Of a stretch of DNA of 59,646 nucleotides, positions 20,638 to 44,727 are shown piece after piece (the stretch's first letter is position 1; every line of letters begins with the position of its first letter). This DNA is from Streptomyces otsuchiensis (GTDB lineage: Bacteria; Actinomycetota; Actinomycetes; Streptomycetales; Streptomycetaceae): assembly GCF_004305975.1 (NCBI RefSeq), contig NZ_BHZI01000002.1, positions 1 to 59,646 on the forward strand, in the 5' to 3' direction. The notes under the pieces were generated by a model. That model did no database searches. It saw nothing but the letters and a program-made list of their open reading frames with translations, and was not told the origin of the DNA. A program made the position numbers and the translations under genes.

Positions 20638-20811
20638 TCAGTCGATCCCCCGGACGATGTGGGACTCCGCCGGGTCGTCCATGCACCCGGCGAGCACCGG
20701 TACGGCCTCCGCGTTCCCCATCGCCACCTCCGTCCGAGGGCTCCGAACGGAAGTCCCCGGAAACGGTCCGGCGCAGTCCTGGTCTGCGCCGTGTCCGTGT
20801 TCGTACGTCAC
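20638..20811 (-). CDS. Candidate small ORF (57 residues) at the end of the polyketide operon
   Basis: GTG at 20811 is preceded by GAGGAG with 6-nt spacing (20818-20823), as good as any start in the operon, and the frame runs 57 codons with about 85% G/C at third positions. The peptide starts VTYEHGHGADQDC and ends ESHIVRGID; an upstream in-frame ATG at 20847 is also possible. It follows the FabG gene by 80 bp in the same direction. It resembles no family I know; it has two Cys and no hydrophobic helix. It could be a small accessory or regulatory protein, or a chance frame. Confidence 0.38.
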   Translation of the reverse strand: MTYEHGHGADQDCAGPFPGTSVRSPRTEVAMGNAEAVPVLAGCMDDPAESHIVRGID

Positions 20812-20890
20812 CTCGCGCTCCTCTCGTCGGCTACGGCAGTTGCTCATGCCCGCCGCACAGCGGTCCCACAGACCGGGCCGTCCGTCGCGC

Positions 20891-21595
20891 TCAGTGCCCC
20901 ATTCCGAGCCCGCCGTCGACCGGGACCACAGCGCCGGTGACGTACCCGGCCTCCTCGGATGCAAGCCAGACCACTGCGGCTGCGATCTCCCCGGGAGCTG
21001 CGGTCCGCCGGAGGGGCACCTCGCGCAGGATCTCCTCACGCCTGCGCTCGGACAGTTCACCCGTCATGTCGGTCTCCACCAGCCCCGGCGCCACCACGTT
21101 GGCCGTCACACCGCACGGGGCGAGTTCACGCGCCAGCGAGCGGGCGAGCCCGACCAGCCCCGCCTTGCTCGCTGCGTAGCTGGTCTGTCCGGGTGAGCCC
21201 CGCAGACCGGCAACTGAAGAGACGAAGATCATGCGTCCCCGACGATTGACCAACATCGACTGGGCCGCCCGCCGCGCCGTGCGGAAGGCACCGGCCAGGT
21301 TGGTGTCCAGAACGCGGTGGAACTCCCCGTCGCGCGTCCGCAGCGCCAGCCTGTCGTCGGTGATGCCGGCGTTCGCCACGACGATCTCCACGGGCCCGTG
21401 GGCCTCCTCGGCCTCAGTGAACGCCCGGTCCACCTGAGCGGGATCGGTAACGTCGCAACGGATCGCCAGTAGCCCGTCGGGTACTCCAGATCCCCGGTGC
21501 GTCACCGCGACGGCGTCCCCGCGCGCCGCGAAAGCGCGGGCGACGGCCAGCCCGATTCCCCTGTTACCTCCGGTGACGAGAACGGAACGGCTCAT
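20891..21595 (-). CDS. 3-oxoacyl-ACP reductase (FabG-type SDR)
   Basis: A 234-residue FabG-like ketoreductase. Cofactor site VTGGNRGIGLAVARAFAARG (residues 7-26), NAGITDD near 80, SSVAGLRGSPGQTSYAASKAG with catalytic Ser, Tyr and Lys (about 126-146), and the PGLVETDM turn near 168. FabG proteins of discrete (type II) polyketide systems reduce ACP-bound beta-ketones. It is the last recognisable enzyme of a leftward operon in which all but one junction overlap by 4 bp, and it overlaps the flavin reductase gene upstream. Confidence 0.93.
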   Translation of the reverse strand: MSRSVLVTGGNRGIGLAVARAFAARGDAVAVTHRGSGVPDGLLAIRCDVTDPAQVDRAFTEAEEAHGPVEIVVANAGITDDRLALRTRDGEFHRVLDTNLAGAFRTARRAAQSMLVNRRGRMIFVSSVAGLRGSPGQTSYAASKAGLVGLARSLARELAPCGVTANVVAPGLVETDMTGELSERRREEILREVPLRRTAAPGEIAAAVVWLASEEAGYVTGAVVPVDGGLGMGH

Positions 21596-22167
21596 GTAAC
21601 AGCCTCCAGGTCCAGGCCCGCGTAGGCACCGCGATGGTAGACGAGCGGTCCGTGCTGTGCGGGGGCGGTGTGCACGGCCTCGACCCTGCCCAGCAGGATC
21701 ACGTGGTCTCCTCCCGGGTACCGCAACTCGGTCCGGCAGTCGATCGCCAGGACTGCGTCGTCGACCAGCACGTTTCCGGTGAGGCCCACCGCAGCGCCGA
21801 GTTCGCGCTGTGCCCGCGTACCGGCCGGGCGCCGACGAGAGGCGAAGGCCCGTGCCAGCGGCTCCTGCTCACGCGACATCACGTTGACGGTGAAGGAGCC
21901 GTGCCGTTCGATCGCGCGCTGGGTCCGCCCCTCGGCGCCGATGCTGATCATGACGAGCAACGGGTCGAGGGAGATCGACGTAACGGAACTCGCGGTCACC
22001 GCCTCCGTCTGTTCCCCGCTGTTGACGGTCACCACCGTGACGCCGGTGGGCAGCAGGCCCATCGCGGCGCGGAACGTCATCGTGTCAGGTGCTTCGCTGG
22101 TGTGCCTCCCGTCACCTACCCCGGTGGGGGTGGTGGGGGGCTCTGCCGCAGCAATCGATGTTCTCAT
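21592..22167 (-). CDS. Flavin reductase family protein
   Basis: A 191-residue FMN-binding flavin reductase (DIM6/NTAB, HpaC-like). Typical segments: FRAAMGLLPTGVTVVTV (about residues 32-48), AVTASSVTSISLDPLLVMIS (about 56-75), and a C-terminal strand DHVILLGRVEAV. Such enzymes supply reduced flavin to a partner monooxygenase. In this cluster the luciferase-like protein at 43582-44727 or another flavin oxygenase could be the partner; in the manumycin family AsuE2 plays this part. It is embedded in the polyketide operon, overlapping genes on both sides. Confidence 0.92.
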   Translation of the reverse strand: MRTSIAAAEPPTTPTGVGDGRHTSEAPDTMTFRAAMGLLPTGVTVVTVNSGEQTEAVTASSVTSISLDPLLVMISIGAEGRTQRAIERHGSFTVNVMSREQEPLARAFASRRRPAGTRAQRELGAAVGLTGNVLVDDAVLAIDCRTELRYPGGDHVILLGRVEAVHTAPAQHGPLVYHRGAYAGLDLEAVT

Positions 22168-22667
22168 CGGACACCCTCCTCGCCGGTGGTCCGATGCCGT
22201 CCACCGCCGTGCTTCTGCACCAGACAGCTGACCCGGGCCGAGGAGGTCAGTCGCCCCTTGTCATCCGTGATCGACACCGCGTAGGTCGCCACTCTGTCCC
22301 CTTGACTGAGCGGCACGCACACGCCCGTGACCGTGCCGCTCCGCGCCGGACGGTGGTGGGTGCAGGACACCTCCACTCCGGCCACTGCTCCCCGGGGAGC
22401 CACGTGAAGACCGGCGGCCATGGAGCCCAGCGTCTCGGCTAGCACCGCGTTGGCTCCCCCGTGCAGCCAGCCGAACGGCTGTTGGTTACCCTCCACGGGC
22501 ATGGTCCCGACCAGCCGCCCCTCCTCGTGCGAGACGACCGTGATCCCCATCTTGGTGATCAGCTGCCGGGCGAGCAGCTCAGGCGGGATCGAAAGGATGG
22601 TCTCGGGCAGCCGAACGCCCGGCTCGGCCGCGGTGGGCGGCGTGGCGAGTGTTCCGTTGTTCTCCAC
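22164..22667 (-). CDS. PaaI-family hot-dog thioesterase
   Basis: A 167-residue hot-dog fold acyl-thioester hydrolase. The signature NQQPFGWLHGGANAVLAETLGSMA (within residues 61-84) has the HGG motif and the catalytic acid of PaaI/4HBT-II enzymes. It would release an acyl chain from ACP or CoA, as product release or as editing. Its position between the flavin reductase (4-bp overlap) and the ketosynthase genes (28-bp gap) supports a role on the polyketide. Confidence 0.9.
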   Translation of the reverse strand: MENNGTLATPPTAAEPGVRLPETILSIPPELLARQLITKMGITVVSHEEGRLVGTMPVEGNQQPFGWLHGGANAVLAETLGSMAAGLHVAPRGAVAGVEVSCTHHRPARSGTVTGVCVPLSQGDRVATYAVSITDDKGRLTSSARVSCLVQKHGGGRHRTTGEEGVR

Positions 22668-22695: not shown

Positions 22696-23496
22696 TCAGC
22701 GGCCGGAACGGTGGAGGCGCAGCCCGGGCCCGCCCGGGGTGATCACACCGACGGCGGTCGGCGCGCCGTCCAGCACACGTCGTGCAGCCGCGGCAAGAGC
22801 ACCGACGCCGTGCAACGGGTCGTCCTCGGCCGCTGCTTCGGCAGAGTGGTACTCCTGTGCCATCAGGTCGATCGAGACGTCGGCCGTCCCAGGACTGCTT
22901 CCGTAACGGCCGAGCAGCAGGGCGACCGCCGCATCACCGCCAGCCTCCGGACCGGGACTGCTCCCGCGTGCGGCGAGAGCCGCGCGGGTGCGGGGGCTGG
23001 CGGCGAGTTCTACCCCGATCAGGAGAAGCCGATGCACCCCCTCCTCCGCGAGCAACAGCCCCACCGTCTCGAAAGCTGCTGCGGCGGAGCGGCTGTCCTC
23101 CACCGACAGACACGTGACCGGGCCGCGGATGCGGTGGTCACGGGTGACGACCCCCAGGACGGAGGTCGGCACCGACTGGTAGAAGAGCAGCGGGTTGTTG
23201 GCCTGCCCCGCCGCGAGGCGGCGGCTGGCGAGGTCGGTGGTGGTGACGTCCCCGAAGCCGGTGACCAGCACGACGGCCGTGTGGTCCCCCGACACCCCGA
23301 GCCCGTCGGGGGCAGCCCCTGCAAGGCACCGGTCGGAGACCGTCTTCACCAGCGGATTGAAGCGGGACTCTATGAAGCCCGGCAGCCCGGGCAGCGCTCC
23401 CTCGGCCGGCCACGCCACGGAGGCCGTTCCCAGGAGACGTGCGGGAAGGCCGGCCGGTTCGCGTGACAGTGCGGCTCGAATCGGATCGGTGGTCAT
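22696..23496 (-). CDS. Half-size beta-ketoacyl synthase-like protein (chain-length-factor-like)
   Basis: A 266-residue protein covering only the N-terminal thiolase-fold half of a ketosynthase. The segment where the nucleophile would stand reads SVEDSRSAAAAFE (near residue 128), with acidic residues instead of Cys, so it should not form a C-C bond itself. It resembles the short KS-like subunit of aryl polyene systems (Ketoacyl-synt_2 family) more than a full 400-residue CLF. Its start overlaps the stop of the active KS gene by 4 bp, which supports a KS/KS-like heterodimer setting chain length. That role is inference. Confidence 0.82.
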   Translation of the reverse strand: MTTDPIRAALSREPAGLPARLLGTASVAWPAEGALPGLPGFIESRFNPLVKTVSDRCLAGAAPDGLGVSGDHTAVVLVTGFGDVTTTDLASRRLAAGQANNPLLFYQSVPTSVLGVVTRDHRIRGPVTCLSVEDSRSAAAAFETVGLLLAEEGVHRLLLIGVELAASPRTRAALAARGSSPGPEAGGDAAVALLLGRYGSSPGTADVSIDLMAQEYHSAEAAAEDDPLHGVGALAAAARRVLDGAPTAVGVITPGGPGLRLHRSGR

Positions 23497-24683
23497 GGGC
23501 GCTCCAGGACGATCGCTGCGTTGAGCCCGCCGAACGCGGCGTTCACGCTCAGGACCCGGCGTACCGCAGCGCTGCGTGGTTCGTTGGGGACCCAATCGAG
23601 ATCGCAGACCGGGTCGGGCGAGCCGTAGCCGGCCGTCGGCGGCAGGATGCCGTGGAGCAGGGCGTACACCCCGATCACCGCCTCGACCGCGCCGGAGCCC
23701 TCCAGCATGTGCCCGGTCGTGCTCTTGGTCGAGCTGACCGGGATGTGGCGGGCCGCGGGCCCGAGAGCCCGGTGGAGTGCCGAGGTCTCGGCCGGGTCGT
23801 TGATCTTGGTCCCGGTGCCGTGGGCGTTGACGTAGTCGACCCCCTCCGGTGCCGCCCCCGCGTCGCGGAGCGCCGCCGAGATCGCCCGGGCCATGCCGGT
23901 GCCCTCGGGATGCGGGTGGCAGACGTGGTGAGCGTCCGCGGCCATGCCCCAGCCGCTGAGCCGAGCAAGCGGCTGCGCACCGCGCGCTCGCGCCCCGGAG
24001 CCGGACTCCAGCACCAGGACAGCGGCACCGTCGCCCAGCAGCAGCCCCTGACGCTCGGCCGAGAACGGCCGGACCCTGCCGTCCGCCGCGAACGCGCGGC
24101 CGGAGTCGAACTTGGCGAAGAACTCCGGCTCGACCAGATAGGCCCCACCGCACAGCACGATGCCGGCCCGGCCCGCACGGATCAGCCGTGCACCGTGCAC
24201 GAGGGCGTTGGTAGACGCGACACACGCGTTGACGAAGGCCAGCCGCCGCCCCGATACGCCGAGGTCGTCGGCTACCAGCCCGGTCAGAGCGGCCGGAAGG
24301 CTCTCCGCAATCCCCGGGACGGCGGCCGAGCCGCCGCCGGACCAGAAGGCGGTGACGCCGGTGTGGTCACCCTGGGTACCGAGCAGCACATCCGCGTGAC
24401 GCGGCTCCTCCAGACCCGCCATGCCGAGCGCGGCGCGGGCACAGGCCACGAGCGCCGCACGCTGGTCGGGCGGACCTGGATTCTCCCGTGTGCCGGGCGC
24501 GGAGGGAAGCTCACGGGCCGTGGCCGCGGTCCGCGATCGGAACCGGCCGGTCGCGAAACGGTCGACCGGCCGGAAGGCCGCGTTCCCCGCGAACACGCCG
24601 TCCCGCAGCGCGGCGTCACCGGCGCCGTGGCCCGTGAGCAGGCCGTAGCCCGTGACGAGGACGTCGTCGGGGGCGGTGCTCAT
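23493..24683 (-). CDS. Beta-ketoacyl-ACP synthase (KS, discrete polyketide type)
   Basis: A 396-residue KAS II-type condensing enzyme with a complete catalytic triad: Cys154 in VNACVAST, His288 in NAHGTGTKIND, and His325 in STKSTTGHMLEGSGAVE. It elongates an ACP-bound acyl chain with malonyl-ACP. Overlaps of 4 bp with the KS-like gene downstream and the tandem ACP gene upstream place it at the core of the operon. Together with FabG, a two-subunit MaoC dehydratase and an enoyl reductase, the set resembles highly reducing type II polyketide synthases. Confidence 0.94.
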   Translation of the reverse strand: MSTAPDDVLVTGYGLLTGHGAGDAALRDGVFAGNAAFRPVDRFATGRFRSRTAATARELPSAPGTRENPGPPDQRAALVACARAALGMAGLEEPRHADVLLGTQGDHTGVTAFWSGGGSAAVPGIAESLPAALTGLVADDLGVSGRRLAFVNACVASTNALVHGARLIRAGRAGIVLCGGAYLVEPEFFAKFDSGRAFAADGRVRPFSAERQGLLLGDGAAVLVLESGSGARARGAQPLARLSGWGMAADAHHVCHPHPEGTGMARAISAALRDAGAAPEGVDYVNAHGTGTKINDPAETSALHRALGPAARHIPVSSTKSTTGHMLEGSGAVEAVIGVYALLHGILPPTAGYGSPDPVCDLDWVPNEPRSAAVRRVLSVNAAFGGLNAAIVLERP

Positions 24684-25279
24684 CGCCCGGCTACCTCCGT
24701 CACCGCGTCACCGGTGCGGTTGCCCGCTGCGCTCAGAGCGCACAACGACCGGTGGAGGCCGCCCACCGTGGTGACCCCCTCGACCTCCGCTGGGGCGATC
24801 TCCATGTCGATGCCGTGCTGCTCCTTGAGCTGGTAGCAGAACCACACCAGGGTGAGCGAGTCGAGCACGACCTCCTCGTCGTCCGCGACCTGGTCGGGAG
24901 CGACATCGGGGAGGATCTGGCTGAGCACCAGTAGGCGCTTGACCTCGGCGAGGGTCAGCCCGGCCAGGTCGGCACGGCCTGCGGACGCTTTCACGGCGAG
25001 GGCGTCGGTGTCCGCCGACGACAGCCGACTGCGGATGTCGGCCGCCAGCTCGCCCACGGTCGCCGTCGCCAGCCCGTCCACCGCCTCATCGGGGAGCTGT
25101 ACCCCGTACTGCCGCTCCAGGTGGACAGTGAGTTCCACCAGTGCGAGCGACTCCAGTTCGAGCCCGCCGGCTCCAAGGGGAGTCGAGGGCGAGGTGTCAC
25201 TGGGCACGGGCATGTTGAGCATGTCGCGGACGATGCCGAGCACATAGTCCGAGACGGGGTCGTTCTCTGCGGTCCTCAC
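24680..25279 (-). CDS. Tandem acyl carrier protein (two ACP domains)
   Basis: A 199-residue protein with two carrier domains. Domain 1 (about 5-85) has the phosphopantetheine Ser44 in LELESLALVELTVHLE; domain 2 (about 105-180) has Ser141 in VVLDSLTLVWFCYQLKEQHG. The two domains are dissimilar: the second carries aromatic residues (WFCY) after the attachment Ser, so they may serve different partners rather than simply raise throughput. The gene overlaps KS and FabV genes by 4 bp each. One of the two phosphopantetheinyl transferases in the window (38449 or 57025) would activate it. Confidence 0.93.
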   Translation of the reverse strand: MRTAENDPVSDYVLGIVRDMLNMPVPSDTSPSTPLGAGGLELESLALVELTVHLERQYGVQLPDEAVDGLATATVGELAADIRSRLSSADTDALAVKASAGRADLAGLTLAEVKRLLVLSQILPDVAPDQVADDEEVVLDSLTLVWFCYQLKEQHGIDMEIAPAEVEGVTTVGGLHRSLCALSAAGNRTGDAVTEVAGR

Positions 25280-26499
25280 GTCGGTCTCCTTGGGTTCGAG
25301 GGAATGATCAGGGCGTCGAGGATGGGGCGCACCGGATCGGTGTCGGCCGCGTAGTCCACCCCGTCGACTCCGAAGCCGTGCAGCTGGCGGGCGAGGACCG
25401 CGTAGCGGTCCAGGTCGCCGAGGCGTGCGAGGTCTGCCGTGTCGCCGACCGCCTCCCAGCGCCGACGCACCTCGGCCTGGATGCCGGGGCGCATCTCGAT
25501 GTCGTCCAGACGGATCCGGTCCCGTTGGTCGGTGACGACACCTCCGTTGCCGGAGTAGAGGGCTGCGAGCAGGCGGCTCGCCTGGCCGTCCGTGTCCTCC
25601 GGGACTCCTGCCTCACGGGTGACCCGCGAGAGCAGGAGCGTGTACAGCAACTGCACCGGCATCACCTGGCTCGCCGGTGTGATCAGCGCCCGCATGACCG
25701 CGGCGTGGGCACGGCCGCCGTGCGGAGCCAGCAGACGCGCCAGGTCGGTCGCGGTGCGCTCCAGATCCTGTTTGGCGCGTCCGAGGGTGCCGTCGCGGTA
25801 GGTCGGGGCGAGCCACCGGTTACCGACGTAGCTGAAGGCGACCGTCGTGGCACCGGGCATGAGCGCCCCGTGCTCCTGCAGCACCTCGATCCAGCGACGC
25901 CAGTCGGCTCCGCCCATCACCCGCACGGTCTGCTCGACCTCCTCCGGAGTCGCGGCCGGGGTGGTGTGAGTCCGGATTCCCGCCGTCCGGGGGTCGAACG
26001 CCTTCTCCGTGAAGGGCGCTCCGATGGTCTTGATGACCGACCGGTCGACCCGGCCCGTGCCGTTTTCCTCCCGGCGCGGCGCGGCCAGGCTGTGCACGAC
26101 GAGGTCCACGCCGCCCAGTTCCTCGGAGATCAGGCGCGCAGCGTGCTCCTTGACCGTGTCGCTGAAGGCGTCACCGACGACCGTGCGGCCGAACAGCTTC
26201 GCGGTGCGGAGCTCATGCTCGGTAGCGGAGGCGTTGTACCAGCCGGCGGTGCCCGTGCGGTGGGGCACACCCGGACGTTCCGCGCAGATGCCGACTGTCG
26301 CGGCCCCGTAGCCGAAGGCGGCGGTGAGCCTGGTGGCCAGGCCGAGCCCCGACGAGGCCCCTATGACGAGCGCGGCACGGGGTCCGCGGGCGGGCCGCGC
26401 GGCCTGGAGCGACCGCACCGTTGTGCGCACCACCCGCGCTCGCCCGACCGGGTGGGCGGTGACCCAGAGGGCGCCACGGCGGACGGGCTCGATGATCAT
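25276..26499 (-). CDS. fabV: Trans-2-enoyl-CoA/ACP reductase, FabV type
   Basis: A 407-residue enoyl reductase of the FabV/TER family, which is larger than FabI and uses a Tyr-X8-Lys active site. Here this is Tyr234-Lys243 in TYRDGTLGRAK. The N-terminal I(I)EPxxRG and the cofactor site VIGASSGLGLATRLTAAFGY (about 45-64), then DLVVHSLAAPRR and SYVGNRW, all match the family, and the length is near normal. It would make the chain saturated at one or more positions. FabV in a secondary-metabolite operon is unusual. Overlaps both neighbours by 4 bp. Confidence 0.95.
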   Translation of the reverse strand: MIIEPVRRGALWVTAHPVGRARVVRTTVRSLQAARPARGPRAALVIGASSGLGLATRLTAAFGYGAATVGICAERPGVPHRTGTAGWYNASATEHELRTAKLFGRTVVGDAFSDTVKEHAARLISEELGGVDLVVHSLAAPRREENGTGRVDRSVIKTIGAPFTEKAFDPRTAGIRTHTTPAATPEEVEQTVRVMGGADWRRWIEVLQEHGALMPGATTVAFSYVGNRWLAPTYRDGTLGRAKQDLERTATDLARLLAPHGGRAHAAVMRALITPASQVMPVQLLYTLLLSRVTREAGVPEDTDGQASRLLAALYSGNGGVVTDQRDRIRLDDIEMRPGIQAEVRRRWEAVGDTADLARLGDLDRYAVLARQLHGFGVDGVDYAADTDPVRPILDALIIPSNPRRPT

Positions 26500-27938
26500 C
26501 CCTTCTCACCCGTCAGAGCGCGGCTGGCGCGGGTCGCGCCGAGCGGCCGTCCCGCTGCATGACCGGCGCGCAGCAGCTCCGCGGTTCGCAGCAGCTTTCC
26601 GTTGTCGGTGCGCGGCAGCGATGGAACGATGTGGACGCGGCGGGGGATCTTGAAGTTGCTCAGCCGCTCCCGCGCGAAGGCGAGCAGCTCCGTCACCGAC
26701 AGCCCGTCGGGAGCACCCACGTGCGCCTCAATGCCGTCGCCCTGGACGACGACCACCTCCCGGACAGCCGGGTGGGTGGCGAGGGCGTGCTCGACCTCCA
26801 GCAGGTCGACCTTCAGCCCGCCGACGGCGACGAGGGAGTCGGAGCGACCGGTGATCCGCAGAGCGCCGTCCGCGGCGTCGAACTCGGCGAGGTCACGCGA
26901 GTTGAGCCAGCCGTCGTGGTATCGGTCGGTCCCCTGCTCCTGAAGGTAAGGCGAGCGGTCGAGTCCGATCCGCAGTTCGCCCCCGTCCACCCGGGTCCGG
27001 ACCCCGGGGACGACCCTGCCGACCGCGGGGGGACCGAGCTCGCCTGCGAGGTCGGTCGCGATGATCCCGGTCTCGGTCGTGCCGTAGGCCTGCCCCACCC
27101 TGATCCCGTAGCGCTCCAGGAACCGCTGGTGGACTTGGGGTGGAAGTCCTTCGCCACCGCTGACGGCGAGCCGTAGGCGCGGGAGGGGCGGCGGGATGAC
27201 CACCCGGCTGAGCAGGTCGAAGTGAAAGGGAACGCCGAAGAGGACGTCGATGTTCTCCTCCACGAGCGTCCGCAGCAGGGCGTCGGGCTGGAGCCGGGAG
27301 GTGAAGACGACGGTGGCCCCGGTGTTCAGCGCGTGCAGGACTCCCCCGATGAGCCCGAAGGAGTGGATGGTCGAGTTGAGCAGCAGCACACGCTCACCCG
27401 GGCGGGGCATCCCTTCGAGCCGGGAGAACGCCTGCAGCTCGGCCCGCAGCGACCTCGAGGTACGGCCGATCACCTTGGGCCGGCCCGTGGAGCCGGAGCT
27501 GAACTGCACGAGGCAGTGGTCCGAGCGGGCGTTCCTGCCTCTGCGTCGCCACTCCACGTACACCTCGCACTCGTCCCGGAACTGCGCTGTGGCGGCGTCG
27601 TCGGTCACGTGCACGTAGTGGCGGGGCTCGCAGAGGTCCAGGATCCGCTGCACCTCACTCGTCTTGAGGCGGTGGTCCAGGAGCTGGACCTGCGCCCCGA
27701 GGGACCACAGGGCCATCAGGGACCAGATCCCGGTGAGGCTGGGCGGCAGCCGTAGCGCGACCGAGCTACCGTGCCCAATCCCCTGGGCGGCGAACATCCC
27801 GGCGCTCCGTTCCACGCGCTCGCGCAGTTCGGCCCAGGTGACGGTGGCTTCCGCGCGCGCCCAGACGGCGTCGCCCGGCTGCCCGGCCAGCAGGTGGTCT
27901 CCCCACCAGGGGGCCTCCGAATGCTGGGGAGTGGTCAC
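26496..27938 (-). CDS. AMP-dependent acid-CoA/ACP ligase
   Basis: A 480-residue ANL-superfamily adenylating enzyme. The phosphate loop is VQFSSGSTGRPKVIG (about residues 149-163), with YGTTETGIIATD near 285, the hinge-side Asp motif in NSRDLAEFDAADGALRITGRSDS near 350, and the catalytic Lys near the end in LPRTDNGKLLR. It is short for a CoA ligase, as in ligases that load an ACP. First gene of the leftward operon, next to the 3,4-AHBA genes, so 3-amino-4-hydroxybenzoate is a likely substrate; this is inference. Confidence 0.9.
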   Translation of the reverse strand: MTTPQHSEAPWWGDHLLAGQPGDAVWARAEATVTWAELRERVERSAGMFAAQGIGHGSSVALRLPPSLTGIWSLMALWSLGAQVQLLDHRLKTSEVQRILDLCEPRHYVHVTDDAATAQFRDECEVYVEWRRRGRNARSDHCLVQFSSGSTGRPKVIGRTSRSLRAELQAFSRLEGMPRPGERVLLLNSTIHSFGLIGGVLHALNTGATVVFTSRLQPDALLRTLVEENIDVLFGVPFHFDLLSRVVIPPPLPRLRLAVSGGEGLPPQVHQRFLERYGIRVGQAYGTTETGIIATDLAGELGPPAVGRVVPGVRTRVDGGELRIGLDRSPYLQEQGTDRYHDGWLNSRDLAEFDAADGALRITGRSDSLVAVGGLKVDLLEVEHALATHPAVREVVVVQGDGIEAHVGAPDGLSVTELLAFARERLSNFKIPRRVHIVPSLPRTDNGKLLRTAELLRAGHAAGRPLGATRASRALTGEKG

Positions 27939-32384: not shown

Positions 32385-32413
32385 ACCGCTCAGGAGAACG
32401 GACGGACAGTGTG

Positions 32414-37280: not shown

Positions 37281-37316
37281 GCGGACCAGGATAGGCACTT
37301 CTCTGACACCTGACTA

Positions 37317-37338
37317 GTAAACGACGAGCGTGGTTTAT
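37317..37338. promoter_or_regulatory. Candidate operator of the TetR regulator at 36672
   Basis: TAAAC (37318-37322) and GTTTA (37333-37337), 10 nt apart, in the gap between the divergent TetR and dehydratase genes. A short inverted repeat at this position is typical of TetR autoregulation; no more can be claimed. Confidence 0.4.
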
Positions 37339-37566
37339 ATGTCGGGTAGCGCCGTTCCCGACGGTACCCGCGCACCCGGACCACGGGACGGTTCGGCCGA
37401 GCCCCGGAGCCGGCAGATCCGCCGCCCGGGTCCGGCCAGACCGCATCCGCACCGGCCCCGGGGGCCGCGGCGCCAGGCGGGAACAGTGACGATCAGCCGT
37501 GCGATGGCGCGCCCGCAGGTCCTGCGCGGCACACCAGGACCGGCCGGCCCGAGAGAAAGGACCATC

Positions 37567-38459: not shown

Positions 38460-39294
38460 CGGCCCCGCGACCCACGGCCCGCCGATCACGACCGGCACGT
38501 GCGGGATCGGCCCGTCCCACTCCTGTTCGGCCTCGTCGGGGTCGCCACGGTCCGCCGCGCCGCACCGCCCGCTCCCCCGCGCCGCGGCACGACTGTGGGT
38601 CTGGGGCGGGCACGCGACCGGGGAGACCACCCCGGAAGACGTCTCGATGCTCTCGGCGGCGGAGCGAGCACGCTTCGACTCATTCCGGGACCCGGCCAGG
38701 GCCTCCTGGTACGCCGGCGCCCACGCGGGCCTTCGACGGGGCCTCGCGTCACTGCTGGGTGTAAGGCCCGCCGATCTGGAGTTCGGCCGTGCCCCGTGCC
38801 CCGGCTGCGGGGACACAGACCACGGCAAGCCCGTGATCACCGAGCCGCTGACGGCACTGGGGATGAGCCTCTCGCGTTCGGGTCCGGCGTGGCTCGCCGC
38901 GGCCGCAGAGGGAGTCTCCGTGGGCGTGGACATCGAGCGGCGGCGGGCGCACTATCCGGCGGGGCTACTGACGGCAGTGCTCAGCGGACCGGAGCGGGCT
39001 CACGTCGCTGCAGCGCCGGCCGGGGACAGGGCGAGGGAGTTCGCCCGGTGCTGGGCGCGCAAGGAGGCCGTCGTCAAGGCGAGTGGCGTCGGAGTGGCGA
39101 CGGACCTGCGCCGCGTCGACACGCGCCCGGGGCACGCCGCGCCCCACGTACAGCACGCCGGGTCGCCCTGCGGGACGGATAGCTGGGTGGTGCGGGACCT
39201 GCCGGCCGCGACGGGCCACGTCGCCGCGGTCGCCCTCCCCTCCACCGCCGGGAGCCGGGCTTCGGAGAGGCGGCCTCGCCCGGGCGCCTCATGA
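38449..39294 (+). CDS. 4'-phosphopantetheinyl transferase (Sfp type)
   Basis: A 281-residue Sfp-type enzyme that converts apo-ACP to holo-ACP with CoA. Motifs: VSVGVDIERRR with the metal-binding Asp/Glu near residue 165 and FARCWARKEAVVKASGVG near 205. The first 45 residues are low-complexity, so the true start might lie further in. Coupled to the dehydratase subunits, it most likely activates the ACPs of this cluster. Its stop overlaps the converging LuxR-type gene by 6 bp. Confidence 0.92.
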   Translation: MRRDGPATHGPPITTGTCGIGPSHSCSASSGSPRSAAPHRPLPRAAARLWVWGGHATGETTPEDVSMLSAAERARFDSFRDPARASWYAGAHAGLRRGLASLLGVRPADLEFGRAPCPGCGDTDHGKPVITEPLTALGMSLSRSGPAWLAAAAEGVSVGVDIERRRAHYPAGLLTAVLSGPERAHVAAAPAGDRAREFARCWARKEAVVKASGVGVATDLRRVDTRPGHAAPHVQHAGSPCGTDSWVVRDLPAATGHVAAVALPSTAGSRASERRPRPGAS

Positions 39295-39954
39295 GGCGAG
39301 GATGCCTTCCTCCATCGCCCGCACCACGGCCATAGTGCGATTGGGGCAGTTGAGTTTGGCCAGCACGTTGCTGACCAGCCGCTTGACCCCGTGCTCCGAT
39401 ATGACCAGCTGCCGGGCCACCTGCTTGTTACTCAGCCCCTGAACCAGCAGGTGGAGCACCTGGAGCTCACGCGGCGTGAGCGCCGCCCCGCGGCCCTCCG
39501 GGAAGGACCTGCGGGCCCTGCCCGCACGTCCCAGGAGTGCCCGGGCGAGAGTGGCAGAGACGAAGAGTTTGTCCCCCAGTATGTCGGTGACGGCTGCGCT
39601 GAGGATGTGGGCGTTGAGGTCCTGGCGGTCGACGTAGCCGTGACCGCCCAGCCGCGCCGAGCGGGCGACATCCTCGTCGTCAGCGCCGTCCACCAGCACC
39701 AGCAGTCGCACGCCGCGCGCGGCCAGTCCGGATAGCACCCCATCGGGCCACCGCTCCTCCGCCTCGTCCGCCGCCAGGACCACCAGCTGCCGTGACGAGC
39801 CCTCGAGCCGGCTGACGGCATCCTCTCCGGCGGCGAAGGAACTGACCGCGGTGTCCTTTGCGTTCGAGCGGATCATGGCTTCGATGCCGTACCGCTGCAC
39901 CGCATCCCCCAGCACGACGCTGATCTCCGACTTCGGTCCGCACATCGTGTCCAC
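39289..39954 (-). CDS. NarL/LuxR-type response regulator-like protein
   Basis: A 221-residue protein with an N-terminal receiver-like domain and a C-terminal LuxR helix-turn-helix: LTPRELQVLHLLVQGLSNKQ, then VARQLVISEHGVKRLVSNVLAKL (about residues 157-200). The receiver part lacks a clear phospho-acceptor Asp at the end of strand 3 (LVVLAADEAEE), and no sensor kinase is nearby, so it may be an atypical or orphan regulator. Start GTG at 39954 lies 5 nt after GGGGGAAGG; ATG at 39945 is the alternative. An ARE-like palindrome 70-90 bp upstream suggests control by the butyrolactone receptor. Probably the pathway-specific regulator. Confidence 0.88.
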   Translation of the reverse strand: MDTMCGPKSEISVVLGDAVQRYGIEAMIRSNAKDTAVSSFAAGEDAVSRLEGSSRQLVVLAADEAEERWPDGVLSGLAARGVRLLVLVDGADDEDVARSARLGGHGYVDRQDLNAHILSAAVTDILGDKLFVSATLARALLGRAGRARRSFPEGRGAALTPRELQVLHLLVQGLSNKQVARQLVISEHGVKRLVSNVLAKLNCPNRTMAVVRAMEEGILAS

Positions 39955-40020
39955 AGCAACCTTCCCCCTCGTCCGAGCATGGCCGGGTGAGTGCCTCTCA
40001 CCGTGATACCGGGCGAGCAT

Positions 40021-40040
40021 AAAACCATCCGTACGGTTTT
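40021..40040. promoter_or_regulatory. ARE-like palindrome upstream of the LuxR-type regulator
   Basis: AAAACC, ATCCGTAC, GGTTTT: perfect 6-bp arms with an 8-nt spacer that itself contributes to CCGTACGG. The arms match those of the two sites beside the receptor and AfsA genes. Placed 67-86 bp upstream of the regulator's start, it is a candidate target of the receptor at 19849. Confidence 0.5.
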
Positions 40041-40058
40041 GACAGGGGCCATTTCGCG

Positions 40059-40152
40059 CTGGACCAATCAATAACAGCCATCCCTAGGGGGAGGTTTCAC
40101 ATATTCATCGCCAATTGGGCGACATGCATCGAGGACAACAGACCAATTGGCC
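40059..40152. repeat. Repeated CCAAT/CCAATTGG motifs in the regulator-MFS intergenic region
   Basis: GACCAATCAAT (40061-40071), CGCCAATTGGGCG (40109-40121) and GACCAATTGGCC (40141-40152) recur at about 30-50 bp spacing. The latter two are palindromic. They look like binding sites of one regulator, perhaps the LuxR-type protein encoded next door; function is inferred. Confidence 0.4.
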
Positions 40153-40225: not shown

Positions 40226-41425
40226 TCAGGCCACCGCAGTGGTCTCCCGTTCGGCCGGGACACCGGTAGCGGCGTCCCGTGAGTCACGCCGCGCGGTGAC
40301 GACGAGCACGACCATCAGGGCCGTCTCGACGACCGCGAGCATGGGCAGCGCCGCCGGGCCGTACAGCGAGAGCATCAGCCCACCCAGCACTCCTCCCAGT
40401 GATGTGCCCAGGTACATGGCACTGGCATTGAGCGCCATCACCTCGTTGCCGGACGGACCCGCCCGGCCAAGCAGCCATACCACCAGCGGCGGGTTGAGCA
40501 GACCGATCGCGAACGCCATGAACATCACAAGCACGACAAGCGCTGCGAACGGAGTCGAGCCCCACAGGACCATCCCGGAGAGCACGACCATGACGGCGAC
40601 CAGCATGCCCGCCCCGATCGCGACGGTCCGCAGCGCACCCAGCTTGTCGCTGGCAGCGCCTCCGACCTGAGTGGCCACCACACCCGCGAGGCCAGCAGCC
40701 ACGAACAACATCGCCACACCCGCGGTATCCACCCCCCCGGCCGCGGCGCTGATCGGCGCGATGTAGGTCATCATCATCATGCTGCCGGCGGACAGCAGCA
40801 TCATGGCGCTCAGGCCACGCAGTACTGGCCCCTTGGTCGCCGGGGCAAGCCGCTCGCGCAGCCCCGACGCAGGCGGCAGCGCCAGCACCGGAAGCAGGGT
40901 GAGCATCGTGACGAGCACGAGGACACCGAGTCCGACGCACATCCAGAAGGCGGCCTGCCACCCCCACATCCCCCCGAACCAGGTTCCCAGCGGGACACCG
41001 AGCAGTTGCGCCAGCATGATGCCCGCACTCAGGGCACCCAGCGCGCGTCCGCGCCGCCCTTCCGGCGGAAGGGTACCTGCCGCGTTGAAACACATGGGCG
41101 TCACCGCCGCGGCCGCCATCGCACTGATCACCCGGGAGACGAGCAGCACCTCGTAGTCCGAGGTACTCGCAGCCACGACGTTTCCGGCGATGAACATCGC
41201 CATGCCGGCGACAGCCAGCGCCCGGCGGGGGACACGCGCCGTGAGCACGGCGGCGACCGGAGCCGAGATCGCGTAGACGATCGAGTAGACGGTCACCAGC
41301 TGGCCGATCGCCGCCTCACCTCTGCCGAGATCCTCGGCCATGTCGCGCAACAGGCCCGCGACCACGAAGTCGGCCGTGCCGAAGGTGAAGATCGCGAGCA
41401 CCAGTGGTACAAGCCACCGCCCCAT
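40226..41425 (-). CDS. MFS transporter
   Basis: A 399-residue major facilitator with 12 predicted membrane helices. It shows the DHA1/AraJ-type pattern: FTFGTADFVVAGLLRDMAED in helix 1, SIVYAISAPVAAVLTARVPRR with the loop 2-3 basic motif, and LGALSAGIMLAQLLGVPLGT in helix 5. Such proteins export drugs or arabinose-like compounds by proton antiport; here the likely role is export of the cluster product. Divergent from the amidotransferase gene, with a palindromic operator candidate between them. Confidence 0.93.
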   Translation of the reverse strand: MGRWLVPLVLAIFTFGTADFVVAGLLRDMAEDLGRGEAAIGQLVTVYSIVYAISAPVAAVLTARVPRRALAVAGMAMFIAGNVVAASTSDYEVLLVSRVISAMAAAAVTPMCFNAAGTLPPEGRRGRALGALSAGIMLAQLLGVPLGTWFGGMWGWQAAFWMCVGLGVLVLVTMLTLLPVLALPPASGLRERLAPATKGPVLRGLSAMMLLSAGSMMMMTYIAPISAAAGGVDTAGVAMLFVAAGLAGVVATQVGGAASDKLGALRTVAIGAGMLVAVMVVLSGMVLWGSTPFAALVVLVMFMAFAIGLLNPPLVVWLLGRAGPSGNEVMALNASAMYLGTSLGGVLGGLMLSLYGPAALPMLAVVETALMVVLVVTARRDSRDAATGVPAERETTAVA

Positions 41426-41658: not shown

Positions 41659-43506
41659 ATGTGCGGCATCACCGGATGGGTCGCGTTCACTCGTGACCTG
41701 ACGGCTCACCAGGACGTCCTGGAGGCCATGACCGCGACCATGAACCGGCGGGGGCCGGACGCCGACGGGACGTGGGTCTCACGGCGAGCGGCGGTGGGCC
41801 ACAGCCGCCTGTCCGTCATCGATCTCGAGGGCGGGCGTCAGCCCATGGTGACGCGGGTGCACGGCCAGAACATCGTCCTCACATACAGCGGCGAAGTGTA
41901 CAACTACCGCGAACTGCGGCAGGAACTCATTGGCAGAGGGCACTCCTTCACGACCCGGAGCGACACGGAGGTGGTCCTGCGCTCCTACATCGAGTGGGGC
42001 ACCGGCTGCGCCGAGAGGCTCAACGGCATGTTCGCCTTCGCCCTCTGGGACGCCCGCACCGAGCGGATGGTGCTCGTCCGCGACCGGGCGGGCGTCAAGC
42101 CGCTCTTCTACCACCGCACCCGGGACGGCGTCCTTTTCGGCTCGGAACCGAAGGCAATCCTGGCCCACCCAGAGGTAGTCCGACGCGTCCGCACCGACGG
42201 GCTGCGGGAGATGTTCTCCTTCACAAGGACCCCCGGCGAGGCCGTATGGGACGGCGTGCGGGAGCTGCCCCCGGGCACGCTCGCGGTCGTCGACCGCTCC
42301 GGCGTCCGGGAGCGGAGGTACTGGCGCCTGGAGGCTCGGGAACACACCGACGACCTCGCCGCCACAACGGCACACATCCGCGCGCTGCTGGAGGACATCG
42401 CCGCGCGCCAGATGATCTCGGACGTGCCCCGGTGCGTGCTTCTCTCGGGTGGTCTCGACTCCAGCGCGCTCACCGCCATGGCCGCCGGCGGGTTGCGCCG
42501 GCAGTCCGCCGACGCACGGGTGCGCACCTTCGCCGTCGACTTCGTCGGCGGCGCCGACACCTTCCGCGCCACGCGGCTGCGGGAGACTCCCGACGCTCCC
42601 TACATCCGCGACGTGGTCCGTCACGTCGACACAGACCACCGGGACATCGTGCTCGACGCGCGCGGGATCGCCGACCCGGAGCTGCGCAGCCGCACGGTCG
42701 CGGCGCGCGACCTGCCGGGGGTCCACGGAGACATGGACCTCTCGCTCCACCTGCTGTTCGAAGCGATCAGCCGCGAGTCGACGGTGGCCCTGTCAGGTGA
42801 AGCAGCGGACGAGCTGTTCGGGGGGTACGTCTGGTTCCATGATCCCGGCGCCCAGCAGGCCGAGACATTTCCCTGGACCGCGATATTCGGTGAGGCGGAG
42901 CGCGAGGCGCTCACACTGCTGCGACCCGAGGTGCGCGCCCGCCTCCAGCTGGAGGAGTACGCGCGCCAGCGGTACAGCGACGCGGTGGCGGAGGTCCCGC
43001 GGCTGACCGGCGAGGAGGGGCTCGAACGACGAATGCGGCGCATCGGCTACCTGAACCTCACGCGATGGATGCCGTCGCTGCTGGAACGGAAGGACCGGAT
43101 GAGCATGGCCACCGGACTGGAGGTCCGGGTCCCGTTCTGCGATCACCGGCTGACCGAGTACGTCTTCAACACCCCCTGGAGTCTCAAAACGTTCGACGGC
43201 CGGGAGAAGAGCCTGCTGCGGGCCGCCGTCCGCGACCTGCTGCCCGAGTCGGTCGCCGATCGGCGCAAGAGCCCCTATCCGTCGACGCAGGACCCGTTCT
43301 ACCAGCAGGAGCTGCAGCAGCAGGGCAAGCGGGTACTCGCCGACCCGGGCGACGACATCTTCGACCTCGTCGACCCCGAATGGCTGGCTCGGGCCGTCGC
43401 CGGGGACGCGGGCGAGATGTCCCTGCCGGTCCGTCACGGCCTGGAGCGGATCCTGGAGTTTTCCGCGTGGATCGACCTCTACCACCCGAGCATCGACCTC
43501 GACTGA
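41659..43506 (+). CDS. asnB: Glutamine-dependent asparagine synthetase family amidotransferase
   Basis: A 615-residue class II amidotransferase. After Met removal Cys2 is the glutaminase nucleophile (MCGITGWVAF); MNRRGPDADGTW and GHSRLSVIDLEGGRQPM follow. The synthetase half has the ATP-pyrophosphatase loop VLLSGGLDSSALTAM (near 260) and ALSGEAADELFGGY (near 383). Cluster-borne homologues amidate carboxylates other than aspartate, e.g. OxyD in oxytetracycline, so a terminal carboxamide on the product is plausible. Ribosome site GGGGAGG. Followed by a 19-bp bidirectional terminator. Confidence 0.92.
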   Translation: MCGITGWVAFTRDLTAHQDVLEAMTATMNRRGPDADGTWVSRRAAVGHSRLSVIDLEGGRQPMVTRVHGQNIVLTYSGEVYNYRELRQELIGRGHSFTTRSDTEVVLRSYIEWGTGCAERLNGMFAFALWDARTERMVLVRDRAGVKPLFYHRTRDGVLFGSEPKAILAHPEVVRRVRTDGLREMFSFTRTPGEAVWDGVRELPPGTLAVVDRSGVRERRYWRLEAREHTDDLAATTAHIRALLEDIAARQMISDVPRCVLLSGGLDSSALTAMAAGGLRRQSADARVRTFAVDFVGGADTFRATRLRETPDAPYIRDVVRHVDTDHRDIVLDARGIADPELRSRTVAARDLPGVHGDMDLSLHLLFEAISRESTVALSGEAADELFGGYVWFHDPGAQQAETFPWTAIFGEAEREALTLLRPEVRARLQLEEYARQRYSDAVAEVPRLTGEEGLERRMRRIGYLNLTRWMPSLLERKDRMSMATGLEVRVPFCDHRLTEYVFNTPWSLKTFDGREKSLLRAAVRDLLPESVADRRKSPYPSTQDPFYQQELQQQGKRVLADPGDDIFDLVDPEWLARAVAGDAGEMSLPVRHGLERILEFSAWIDLYHPSIDLD

Positions 43507-43513
43507 ACGACAG

Positions 43514-43554
43514 CGGCCGGTGAGTGGGCCCGTTCCGGGCCCACTCACCGGCCG
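43514..43554. terminator. Bidirectional terminator, 19-bp perfect stem
   Basis: CGGCCGGTGAGTGGGCCCG, loop TTC, CGGGCCCACTCACCGGCCG, between the converging amidotransferase and luciferase-like genes. Confidence 0.85.
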
Positions 43555-43581
43555 TCCCCCTGGCAGGGTTGACCCCCTCGA

Positions 43582-44727
43582 TCAGGAGACCGCCGTCGCT
43601 CGCCGGAAACCCTCGACGGCCTTGCCGACGAACTCGCCCCGGTTCTCCCTGACCCAGTCGTTGGAGACGCGGACGCTCCGCGCGCGGCCGTTGAAGTGCG
43701 GCGCAACGAACCGGGCGAGGAGCTCGAAGCTGCGCAAGGTCTCCGCACGGGGCGCCCAGTCGTTCACGGCCACGAGCAGCCGGCCGAAGCCACCCGTCCG
43801 CTCCACGAGCCGTTGCACGGCCGAGACGCAGTCGTCGACCGAGCCGACGATGGCCGCCCCCGACGCCACCATGGCCTCGACCTCCTGCCCCGGGGGCGCG
43901 GACGAGAAGTCCACCGGCAGCCCCAGCGTGTCCTTGAAGTAGCCCAAAGCGTACCGCCGGAACCCCTCACGAACGTCGGAGTACGCCTGTTCGGTGGTCT
44001 TGGCGACGTGGACGGGCAGCACCAACCGCCAGTTCCGCCGGTCGACCACCCGTGTGTGCGCCGCGGCCTCCCGTTCCGCGTGCCCCCACTGGGCGGCGAG
44101 GTCGATCGGAGGGGCACCGGGGACCGGTGCCGCGAAGGACAGCGGGCTGAGGCCGTGCCGGCCGGCGAGCCGCATGCTGACAGGGGAGGACGCGCTGGAG
44201 ATCGCCACCTCCAGCCCGTCCGAATACGGGGCGAGATGAAGCCGGGCGTCGCGGAGTTCGAACCAGTCGGTGGCCCGCGTCACCGTCTCACCTCGCAGCA
44301 GTGGGACGATCACCTCCAGCGCCTCCGCGGTCATGCGCCGCGTCTCGACCGCGTCGACACCGAGCATGTGGGCGTCGGCGGGCGACGAGCCGGAACCGAC
44401 GCCGAACATGACACGGCCCCGGGTCATGTGATCGAGCTGGACGATGCGCGAGGCGGCGTGGAACGGATGGTGATAAGGCAGGCTGACCACGCCGGTGCCG
44501 AGGCGGATGCGGCGGGTTCGCTCTGCCGCCGCGGCCAGGAACACCTCCGGGGAGCTGATGGTTCCCCATCCTCCCGAGTGGTGCTCACCGACCCACGCCT
44601 CGTCGAGGCCGAGCTGGTCGAGCCATCCGATCAGTTCCAGATCACGCCACATCTGCAGGTCGGGTGCCTCCCCCGGTGGGTGCAGCGGCGAGATGAACGC
44701 GCCGAATCCCACGGCGTCAGTCGTCAT
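43582..44727 (-). CDS. Luciferase-like (LLM class) flavin-dependent monooxygenase
   Basis: A 381-residue bacterial-luciferase-fold oxygenase using reduced FMN. AWVGEHHSGGWGTISSPEVFLAAAAERT (within about 42-69) and VSLPYHHPFHAASRIVQLDH (about 81-100) are typical of the limonene/alkanal monooxygenase group, and GSVDDCVSAVQRLVERTG near 305 is the usual C-terminal feature. It would need reduced flavin from a partner such as the reductase at 21592. Whether it acts on the cluster product is uncertain; it may mark the right edge of the cluster. Divergent from the FrnE-like gene. Confidence 0.92.
   Translation of the reverse strand: MTTDAVGFGAFISPLHPPGEAPDLQMWRDLELIGWLDQLGLDEAWVGEHHSGGWGTISSPEVFLAAAAERTRRIRLGTGVVSLPYHHPFHAASRIVQLDHMTRGRVMFGVGSGSSPADAHMLGVDAVETRRMTAEALEVIVPLLRGETVTRATDWFELRDARLHLAPYSDGLEVAISSASSPVSMRLAGRHGLSPLSFAAPVPGAPPIDLAAQWGHAEREAAAHTRVVDRRNWRLVLPVHVAKTTEQAYSDVREGFRRYALGYFKDTLGLPVDFSSAPPGQEVEAMVASGAAIVGSVDDCVSAVQRLVERTGGFGRLLVAVNDWAPRAETLRSFELLARFVAPHFNGRARSVRVSNDWVRENRGEFVGKAVEGFRRATAVS

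What the first reader, a model, noticed from the sequence alone, without database searches (positions are those of the whole stretch)
20638..44727. Hybrid cluster joining 3-amino-4-hydroxybenzoate synthesis to a discrete reducing polyketide system and an NAT-type amide synthase
Seen: GriI/GriH-like pair, KS plus short KS-like partner, tandem ACP, FabG, two-subunit MaoC dehydratase, FabV, AMP-ligase, thioesterase, two KAS III, ACP, NAT-like enzyme, FAD monooxygenase, flavin reductase, PPTase, AsnB-like amidotransferase and exporter. Known: manumycin-type clusters combine 3,4-AHBA, two KAS III, an AsuC2-type NAT and an AsuE1-type monooxygenase, but they also carry 5-aminolevulinate synthase, ligase and C5N amide genes, none of which is here. 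Inference: a manumycin-like scaffold without the C5N ring, possibly ending as a primary amide and with a partly saturated, branched acyl chain.
Basis: partly seen in the sequence, partly recalled or inferred. Interest (0 to 1): 0.85.

Follow-up and report, generated by a model that had tools for sequence, protein, structure and literature searches.

The report
Carpatamide/daryamide-type manumycin gene cluster
This stretch of a Streptomyces genome carries a complete-looking gene cluster for a small two-chain amide of the manumycin family, matching almost gene for gene the cluster in a marine strain whose name is that of the known daryamide producer, so it is a good new example of a known kind rather than a new kind.

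Summary
A cluster of 27 genes with open frames (18.5-46.0 kb) joins 3,4-AHBA synthesis (GriI/GriH) to a discrete reducing type II PKS, a KAS III pair, a NAT-type amide synthase, oxygenases and an AsnB-type amidotransferase. Carpatamide I is exactly such a molecule and has a published candidate cluster, ctd (PMC11595529). Streptomyces sp. CNQ085, whose name matches the daryamide producer CNQ-085, carries the same cluster over two contigs: 15 of 15 genes FabG-ACP collinear at 55-86% identity, then LeuA end, TetR, two MaoC, PPTase, LuxR, MFS, AsnB, luciferase-like and DsbA genes in the same order. Product and amide-forming step are inferred, not shown.

The parts
18452..19504 (-). AfsA/ScbA-family gamma-butyrolactone biosynthesis protein (possible cluster signal; one TTA codon)
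   Evidence: NCBIfam NF041195 270.9 bits over cut-off 200; 39-41% homologue near both the CNQ085 and Lentzea clusters; TTA codon 154
19888..20532 (+). TetR-family regulator (possible butyrolactone receptor)
   Evidence: Pfam; 40% homologues near both other clusters
20891..21595 (-). FabG-like ketoreductase
   Evidence: Pfam, NCBIfam NF009466 over cut-off, 86% over the 71 residues present at the contig edge in CNQ085
21592..22080 (-). Flavin reductase (place of ctd37)
   Evidence: Pfam Flavin_Reduct; 71% in CNQ085
22164..22667 (-). 4HBT hotdog thioesterase (place of ctd36)
   Evidence: Pfam; 79% in CNQ085
22696..23496 (-). Short CLF-like KS partner (266 aa, no Pfam hit); place of ctd35
   Evidence: 64% over 204 aa in CNQ085; in 7 of 7 clusters compared, this one included; NCBIfam: 4 of 6 members match AmcG, 2 of 6 a KS model, weakly; in a rough pairwise alignment none of the three KS catalytic residues is kept
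23493..24683 (-). Ketosynthase alpha for the lower chain, Cys154/His288/His325
   Evidence: Pfam; PDB hits FabF-type, 6kxd 'Ketosynthase' among them; residues; 74% in CNQ085
24680..25279 (-). Fused double ACP; the C-terminal domain has the Trp of the starter-ACP motif quoted for CmaA3/AvaA3
   Evidence: Pfam for the first domain; both Ser motifs; motif in PMC10777205; in different frames in the 3 ALAS-type clusters where both were seen
25276..26499 (-). FabV-type enoyl reductase (place of ctd32)
   Evidence: Pfam; NCBIfam NF010177 408.1 over 403, but NF043048 386.5 under 400; in 3 of 7 genomes compared
26496..27938 (-). AMP ligase, probably loads 3,4-AHBA on the ACP (AvaA1-like role)
   Evidence: Pfam; 76% in CNQ085
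28072..29223 (-). GriH-type 3,4-AHBA synthase (DHQS II family)
   Evidence: Pfam, NCBIfam NF002625 over cut-off; 85% in CNQ085
29220..30089 (-). GriI-type aldolase (start codon uncertain)
   Evidence: Pfam DeoC, NCBIfam NF005556 over cut-off; 82% in CNQ085
30301..31509 (+). FAD monooxygenase (place of ctd28)
   Evidence: Pfam FAD_binding_3; 64% in CNQ085, 49% in Lentzea
31506..32384 (+). NAT-type amide synthase, Cys84/His122/Asp137
   Evidence: Pfam Acetyltransf_2; triad (recalled) invariant in 4 of 4 aligned; 70% in CNQ085
32381..33481 (+). KAS III, Cys135/His276/Asn306 (upper chain)
   Evidence: Pfam, residues; 82% in CNQ085, 74% Kitasatospora, 72% Lentzea
33478..34536 (+). KAS III, Cys124/His260/Asn291 (upper chain)
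   Evidence: Pfam, residues; 78% in CNQ085
34569..34820 (+). ACP for the upper chain
   Evidence: Pfam; 79% in CNQ085
34930..36750 (+). 2-isopropylmalate synthase (LeuA), second copy in the genome; probable supply of branched starter
   Evidence: Pfam, NCBIfam over cut-off; another LeuA match, 73% identical, at G000:C148; LeuA end (84 aa, 48%) at the same place in CNQ085
36672..37298 (-). TetR-family regulator, overlapping the LeuA end
   Evidence: Pfam; 80% in CNQ085
37330..38025 (+). MaoC/HadA-like dehydratase subunit (true start probably near 37567)
   Evidence: Pfam FAS1_DH_region; 61% in CNQ085 from residue 80 on
38022..38459 (+). MaoC/HadB-like dehydratase subunit
   Evidence: Pfam MaoC; 54% in CNQ085
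38449..39294 (+). Phosphopantetheinyl transferase
   Evidence: Pfam ACPS; 58% in CNQ085
39289..40071 (-). LuxR-type regulator (place of the positive regulator Ctd14)
   Evidence: Pfam GerE; 67% in CNQ085
40226..41425 (-). MFS exporter
   Evidence: Pfam; 83% in CNQ085
41659..43506 (+). AsnB-type amidotransferase, probable maker of the primary amide (place of ctd12)
   Evidence: Pfam; 80% in CNQ085 beside the luciferase-like gene
43582..44727 (-). Luciferase-like monooxygenase (place of ctd10)
   Evidence: Pfam; match in 7 of 7 genomes, in or beside the cluster
45005..45985 (+). DsbA-like protein with TPR, probable last gene
   Evidence: Pfam; 79% in CNQ085 and 41% in Lentzea, within the cluster region

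Best explanation
A complete-looking carpatamide/daryamide-type manumycin cluster. GriI and GriH make 3,4-AHBA; the AMP ligase loads it on one domain of the double ACP; the KS with its short CLF-like partner adds malonate (once, if the product is carpatamide-like), and FabG, the MaoC pair and FabV reduce the unit to a saturated arylpropionyl chain; the 4HBT thioesterase releases it and the AsnB-like enzyme turns the acid into a primary amide. Separately the KAS III pair with its ACP builds a short branched dienoyl chain from a branched starter, supported by the extra LeuA; the NAT-type enzyme joins it to the ring amine. The FAD monooxygenase, flavin reductase and luciferase-like enzyme may then oxidise the ring to an epoxy-hydroxycyclohexenone. 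Shown here: gene content, open frames, motifs, synteny, no ALAS over the cut-off. Inferred: every chemical step and the product.
For: Families and open frames, motifs. Streptomyces sp. CNQ085: 15 of 15 genes FabG-ACP collinear on one contig, the rest in the same order on a second. [quoted passage not shown] Carpatamide I has a 7-methylocta-2,4-dienoyl chain, a CH2CH2 lower chain and a primary amide; ctd25/26 KAS III, ctd29-31 AHBA, ctd32 ER, ctd34 KS, ctd36 thioesterase-like, ctd10/28/37 oxidoreductases, ctd12 amide, ctd14 regulator fit the window's order. No ALAS over the cut-off in the window's, CNQ085 or Lentzea genomes (best 242, 244 and 298 bits against 338.55), but in 4 of 4 others; FabV (E<=1e-20) and the FAD monooxygenase (E<=1e-40) match in exactly the first three. 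In the ava/cma systems loading of 3,4-AHBA on an ACP by the ligase was shown in vitro and product formation by heterologous expression (PMC10777205 passages). asuC2 knockout phenotype as cited in PMC11213898 (passage).
Against: No product is known for this strain. AsnB scores over the asparagine synthase cut-off and is the only match of its kind in this genome at E<=1e-50, so it may be an ordinary asparagine synthetase. In Lentzea the AsnB and LeuA matches lie on other contigs than the cluster. That strain CNQ085 is CNQ-085 rests on the name, and that its two contigs adjoin on the split LeuA.
Confidence: 0.88

Rival explanations
1. A C5N-bearing manumycin (asukamycin/colabomycin type) whose ALAS, ligase and amide genes lie elsewhere in the genome.
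For: The core genes are shared with the four ALAS-bearing clusters; the assembly has 752 contigs, so a gene could be missing.
Against: No ALAS over the cut-off in the genome (best 242 bits against 338.55), nor in CNQ085 or Lentzea, while 4 of 4 other genomes have one on the cluster's contig, about 8 to 20 kb from the NAT. Those four have no FabV match at E<=1e-20. The window groups apart from them with support 100 in the unrooted concatenated tree and 85 to 100 in the four single-gene trees.
Confidence: 0.03
2. The AsnB-like gene is an ordinary asparagine synthetase carried along, and the product is a free acid or ester rather than an amide.
For: 485.5 bits against the 267.1 cut-off of TIGR01536; only match in this genome at E<=1e-50; PMC11595529 implies that carpatamides A and C lack the NH2 unit; no AsnB match in the Lentzea cluster.
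Against: 80% orthologue at the same place, beside the luciferase-like gene, in CNQ085; carpatamide I carries the amide, and ctd12 (with ctd27) was assigned to it.
Confidence: 0.15
3. An avenalumic/coumaric-acid-like pathway in which 3,4-AHBA primes a reducing type II PKS and the amine is then removed by diazotisation.
For: Same front end: AHBA pair, ligase, two ACP domains, KS and CLF-like gene, FabG (compared with Table 1 of PMC10777205).
Against: Only one AMP-binding protein and no nitrosuccinate-type gene among the cluster genes scanned with Pfam, and a NAT, KAS III pair and oxygenases that such a pathway does not need. No dedicated search for a diazotase was made.
Confidence: 0.02

Closest known systems
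Cluster in Streptomyces sp. CNQ085 (L025 + L066), the name of the reported daryamide producer CNQ-085
   Same: Order FabG to DsbA; 15 of 15 genes on L025 at 55-86% identity; ten further genes at 48-83% on L066
   Different: AfsA and a TetR lie on the other side, only 39-40% identical; LeuA is cut by the contig end
ctd, candidate carpatamide cluster of Streptomyces parvus 1268 (CP162609, PMC11595529)
   Same: KAS III pair, AHBA genes, ER, KS, thioesterase-like gene, three oxidoreductases, amide gene, positive regulator, in a matching order; primary amide product without C5N
   Different: Sequence not compared. Numbering leaves 10 genes between ctd14 and ctd25 against 6 here; NAT placed at Ctd16 in the text; CLF said to be lacking, whereas a short CLF-like gene is present here
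ALAS-bearing manumycin-type clusters (Kitasatospora mediocidica, Streptomyces sp. NBC_00620, S. lanatus, Streptomyces sp. CBMA152)
   Same: GriI, GriH, AMP ligase, MaoC pair, FabG, flavin reductase, thioesterase, NAT, luciferase-like, KS, short CLF-like, PPTase, LuxR, TetR in 4 of 4
   Different: ALAS over the cut-off, no FabV match, ACPs in different frames (3 of 3 read), FAD monooxygenase only 29-32% identical and beside the PPTase; the first KAS III matches in Kitasatospora only
Cluster in Lentzea sp. NBRC 105346 (L068/L069)
   Same: FabG to ACP collinear, 15 of 15 genes at 46-77% identity; FabV, fused ACP, no ALAS over the cut-off
   Different: Luciferase-like gene lies beside FabG; no AsnB or LeuA match in the cluster; extra acyl-CoA genes
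Avenalumic acid (ava) and p-coumaric acid (cma) clusters
   Same: 3,4-AHBA loaded by a ligase on one of two ACPs and extended by a reducing type II PKS (PMC10777205 passages)
   Different: They remove the amine by diazotisation; no NAT or KAS III pair is in their Table 1
Salternamide region of Streptomyces shinuiensis HK10 (PMC12740849, passages)
   Same: Reported reducing type II PKS region with 3,4-AHBA synthase and flavin enzymes, manumycin family
   Different: Salternamide A is chlorinated; neither sequence nor gene order was available here

Membership tests
Manumycin family (cluster level) | 3,4-AHBA synthase gene pair | tested here: met
   GriH DHQS E 1.7e-107, GriI DeoC; NF002625 and NF005556 over cut-off
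Manumycin family (cluster level) | Lower-chain PKS primed by AHBA (ligase, ACP, KS) | tested here: met
   Genes adjacent at 23493-27938; homologues in 6 of 6 related clusters. Genes only; chemistry not tested
Manumycin family (cluster level) | NAT-type amide synthase for the upper chain | tested here: met
   Acetyltransf_2, triad Cys84/His122/Asp137. AsuC2 itself was not compared
Manumycin family (cluster level) | C5N unit genes (ALAS, ligase, amide synthase); in the majority of compounds but not all (PMC8000086 passage) | tested here: not met
   ALAS: no match over the cut-off in the genome. Ligase and amide synthase of C5N were not searched for apart
Manumycin family (cluster level) | Ring-oxidising enzymes | tested here: inconclusive
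   Flavin reductase and luciferase-like genes are shared with the ALAS-type clusters; the FAD monooxygenase is only 29-32% identical to theirs
Carpatamide/daryamide subtype | Whole-cluster synteny with the daryamide producer | tested here: met
   strain identity by name
Carpatamide/daryamide subtype | Enoyl reductase for a saturated lower chain | tested here: met
   FabV: NF010177 408.1 bits over 403; the narrower NF043048 is missed, 386.5 under 400
Carpatamide/daryamide subtype | Amidotransferase for the primary amide | tested here: inconclusive
   AsnB gene present and syntenic, function not separable from asparagine synthesis
Carpatamide/daryamide subtype | Sequence orthology with ctd | not testable with these tools
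Carpatamide/daryamide subtype | Product | not testable with these tools
   Needs metabolite analysis
Bagremycin/ferroverdin AHBA enzymes | NCBIfam BagC_FevH and BagB_FevI cut-offs | tested here: not met
   426.6 against 750 and 272.9 against 500 bits
Cispentacin AmcG (for the short KS partner) | NCBIfam NF058659 cut-off | tested here: not met
   24.1 against 80 bits; 4 of 6 members match weakly, best E 4.9e-06

The most novel reading that the evidence does not exclude
Manumycin-family lower chains are made by a ketosynthase paired not with a normal chain-length factor but with a shrunken, AmcG-like half protein (about 160-280 aa in the five read in full, KS catalytic residues apparently lost) that Pfam missed in the window copy; it would be a second home, beside cispentacin, of such half partners and would correct the statement that the carpatamide cluster lacks a CLF. 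Since the same kind of partner sits in clusters expected to extend once (here) and several times (ALAS type), chain length would have to be set elsewhere.
Probability: 0.45. Interest if true: 0.45.

Novelty: new member of a known kind. Interest (0 to 1): 0.3.

Why it matters
It gives a contiguous carpatamide/daryamide-type cluster and ties it, through synteny, to the genome of the strain that bears the daryamide producer's name, where the cluster is split over two contigs. With CNQ085 and Lentzea it defines a small group (FabV in the cluster, fused ACP, no ALAS over the cut-off), which makes the gene basis of the saturated, amide-ended lower chain testable by single deletions. The short KS partner is a small open question of its own.

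Tried and rejected
C5N-type product: rejected because no ALAS passes the cut-off in the genome. Grixazone/ferroverdin/bagremycin-type use of AHBA: rejected on NCBIfam cut-offs (bagremycin/ferroverdin only) and on the PKS/NAT context. Avenalumic-type pathway: rejected on gene content. 'AsuE1-type' label for the FAD monooxygenase: not adopted. FabV as a marker by itself: rejected, since 50 of 392 sampled genomes of the genus (this one included) have a match at E<=1e-60, the 49 others at no more than 45% identity, and 2 of 396 across the phylum, this one included; these two calls scored only four candidates a genome. Only its presence inside the cluster counts.

Led nowhere: PDB searches with the short KS partner, alone and as a profile, gave no meaningful hit; profile comparison with the KS was weak (probability 11%, E 0.0028); its structure could not be predicted because the machine was busy at each of eight tries, so no fold search was made. 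The two-sequence alignment of KS and short partner is rough: Cys154 faces Arg, His288 faces Gly, His325 a gap. The asukamycin paper PMC2915727 is not held. 'Manumycin' does not occur in the held text of the AmcG paper.

Rows dropped: the tables keep the best query per place and omit low bit scores (40 or 45); omits those under 60. In the tree GriI of Kitasatospora was missing and its KS partial, because the loci then at hand did not reach them. Of the window's predicted genes outside the cluster only part were scanned with Pfam.

Full report
WHAT IS THERE. The window lies in a genome of 6.15 Mb in 752 contigs. Its genus is Streptomyces by inference: a genome listed as of the same genus (G319) has the contig length and NAT place of the S. 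lanatus record. The genes form tight runs, 10 of 26 neighbouring pairs overlapping by four bases. G+C of 18452-45985 is 70.3%, against 74.3% for bases 1-15000 and 73.9% right of 46000. Catalytic motifs, recalled from the families, are in place: KS Cys154/His288/His325, both KAS III Cys/His/Asn, NAT Cys84/His122/Asp137, FabV Tyr234 and Lys243, AsnB Cys2, ACP serines.

WHO ELSE HAS IT. A NAT alignment scanned against genome contigs gave 27 pattern matches, of which 6 encode a relative (two short peptide patterns, so distant relatives may be missed). The best, 69% identical, is Streptomyces sp. CNQ085. On that contig 15 of 15 window genes from FabG to the second ACP follow in the same order and orientation at 55-86% identity. 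The match ends shortly before the contig's end. A second contig of the same genome carries at its end (19019-19264 of 19268) the last part of a LeuA (84 residues, 48%) and then, going inward, TetR 80%, MaoC pair 61% and 54%, PPTase 58%, LuxR 67%, MFS 83%, AsnB 80%, luciferase-like 80% and DsbA 79%, each in the orientation of the window. That the two contigs adjoin is inference. The AfsA/TetR pair lies on the other side there. Among 392 sampled genomes of the genus, this one included, 22 have a NAT match at E<=1e-30; the best others are 51-53% identical (at most six candidates scored a genome).

WHY THAT MATTERS. [quoted passage not shown] passages only). A 2024 paper (PMC11595529; parts 1 and 2 of 4 and passages seen) describes carpatamide I: a 3,4-AHBA-type ring, a 7-methylocta-2,4-dienoyl amide, a saturated CH2CH2 lower chain and a primary amide, with a candidate cluster ctd. 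From its text, ctd25/26 (KAS III), ctd28 (oxidoreductase), ctd29-31 (AHBA), ctd32 (ER), ctd34 (KS), ctd36 (thioesterase-like), ctd37 (oxidoreductase), and ctd10, ctd12, ctd14 (oxidoreductase, amide, positive regulator) fall where the window has KAS III pair, FAD monooxygenase, GriI/GriH/ligase, FabV, KS, thioesterase, flavin reductase, luciferase-like gene, AsnB and LuxR. This map is mine; the paper's Table S1 could not be read. Its placing of the NAT at Ctd16, its amide role for ctd27 and its 10 genes between ctd14 and ctd25 (6 in the window) do not fit it.

THE SPLIT FROM C5N TYPES. Over seven genomes (the window's and those of six loci), ALAS passes the cut-off in four (Kitasatospora mediocidica, Streptomyces sp. 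NBC_00620, S. lanatus, Streptomyces sp. CBMA152, the last with two such genes) and not in the window's, CNQ085 or Lentzea, where lower-scoring relatives occur. FabV matches in exactly the latter three at E<=1e-20, and so does the FAD monooxygenase at E<=1e-40; the other four carry a FAD monooxygenase 29-32% identical, next to the PPTase. The two ACP domains are one protein in the three and lie in different frames in the three ALAS-type clusters where both were found. The unrooted tree of six proteins separates the two groups with support 100; the four single-gene trees give 85 (NAT) and 100 (GriH, ligase, luciferase-like). FabV as such is not rare in the genus (50 of 392 at E<=1e-60, this one included), so its place inside the cluster is what counts. 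The first KAS III is not a mark of the group: it is also in Kitasatospora. A saturated lower chain is itself not new: a passage names U-62,162 as a rare case (PMC8000086).

HOW IT PROBABLY WORKS. In the ava and cma systems a ligase loads 3,4-AHBA on one ACP, a second ACP is expected to carry malonate, and a reducing type II KS-CLF extends the chain (PMC10777205 passages). The window has the same set with the two ACPs fused; the C-terminal one has the tryptophan of the starter-ACP motif quoted there, with tyrosine where the 4 other second domains read have the histidine. FabV explains saturation of the lower chain, the thioesterase its release, and AsnB the amide. The KAS III pair is of the kind reported for the asukamycin upper chain (title seen in a reference list; not compared by sequence), and asuC2 knockout evidence for the NAT is cited in PMC11213898 (passage). 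The extra LeuA, beside a second match elsewhere in the genome, fits supply of an iso-branched starter; this is inference. Ring oxidation is likewise inference.

THE SHORT KS PARTNER. The 266-aa gene next to the KS has no Pfam hit. Relatives occur in 6 of 6 other clusters and the five read in full, this one included, are 161-277 aa. NCBIfam gives weak matches to AmcG in 4 of 6 and to KS models in 2 of 6. AmcG, a motif-less partner of the KS AmcF, forms a heterodimer that does a single C2 extension and a cyclisation (PMC10698177 passages). Sequence evidence for KS kinship is thin and no structure could be obtained. By position it would be ctd35, which may be why that cluster was said to lack a CLF.

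VERDICT. In the held library, a search for carpatamide or daryamide found 25 papers, 24 listed, of which only PMC11595529 has a gene cluster in its title; no listed title (20 of 111 listed) and 64 ties daryamides to genes. The library covers open-licence papers only.

Noticed in passing
window 49099-53390: Run of 4-HFC-P synthase (MfnB-like), aldehyde dehydrogenase, zinc alcohol dehydrogenase and leucine-carboxyl-methyltransferase-like genes (Pfam): looks like a small furan-type pathway of its own.
   Followed up: no
window 54641-59633: Large LuxR-type regulator, a second PPTase and a further KAS III-like gene near the right edge (Pfam); perhaps the start of another cluster cut by the window end.
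   Followed up: no
window 22696-23496; L025 1235-2068; L068 12202-12687; L083, L085, L029, L030: Short CLF-like KS partner, weakly AmcG-like, found in all seven clusters compared and without a Pfam hit in the window copy.
   Followed up: partly
window 18452-19504: ScbA/BarX-type butyrolactone gene carries the only TTA codon among the 27 cluster genes checked, a possible bldA control point.
   Followed up: no
window 41659-43506: The cluster AsnB is the only match of its kind in this genome at E<=1e-50, so it may double as the cell's asparagine synthetase.
   Followed up: no
L068/L069 (Lentzea sp. NBRC 105346): A third cluster of the FabV type without AsnB or LeuA matches inside it and with extra acyl-CoA genes; its product may be a free acid with another starter.
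   Followed up: partly
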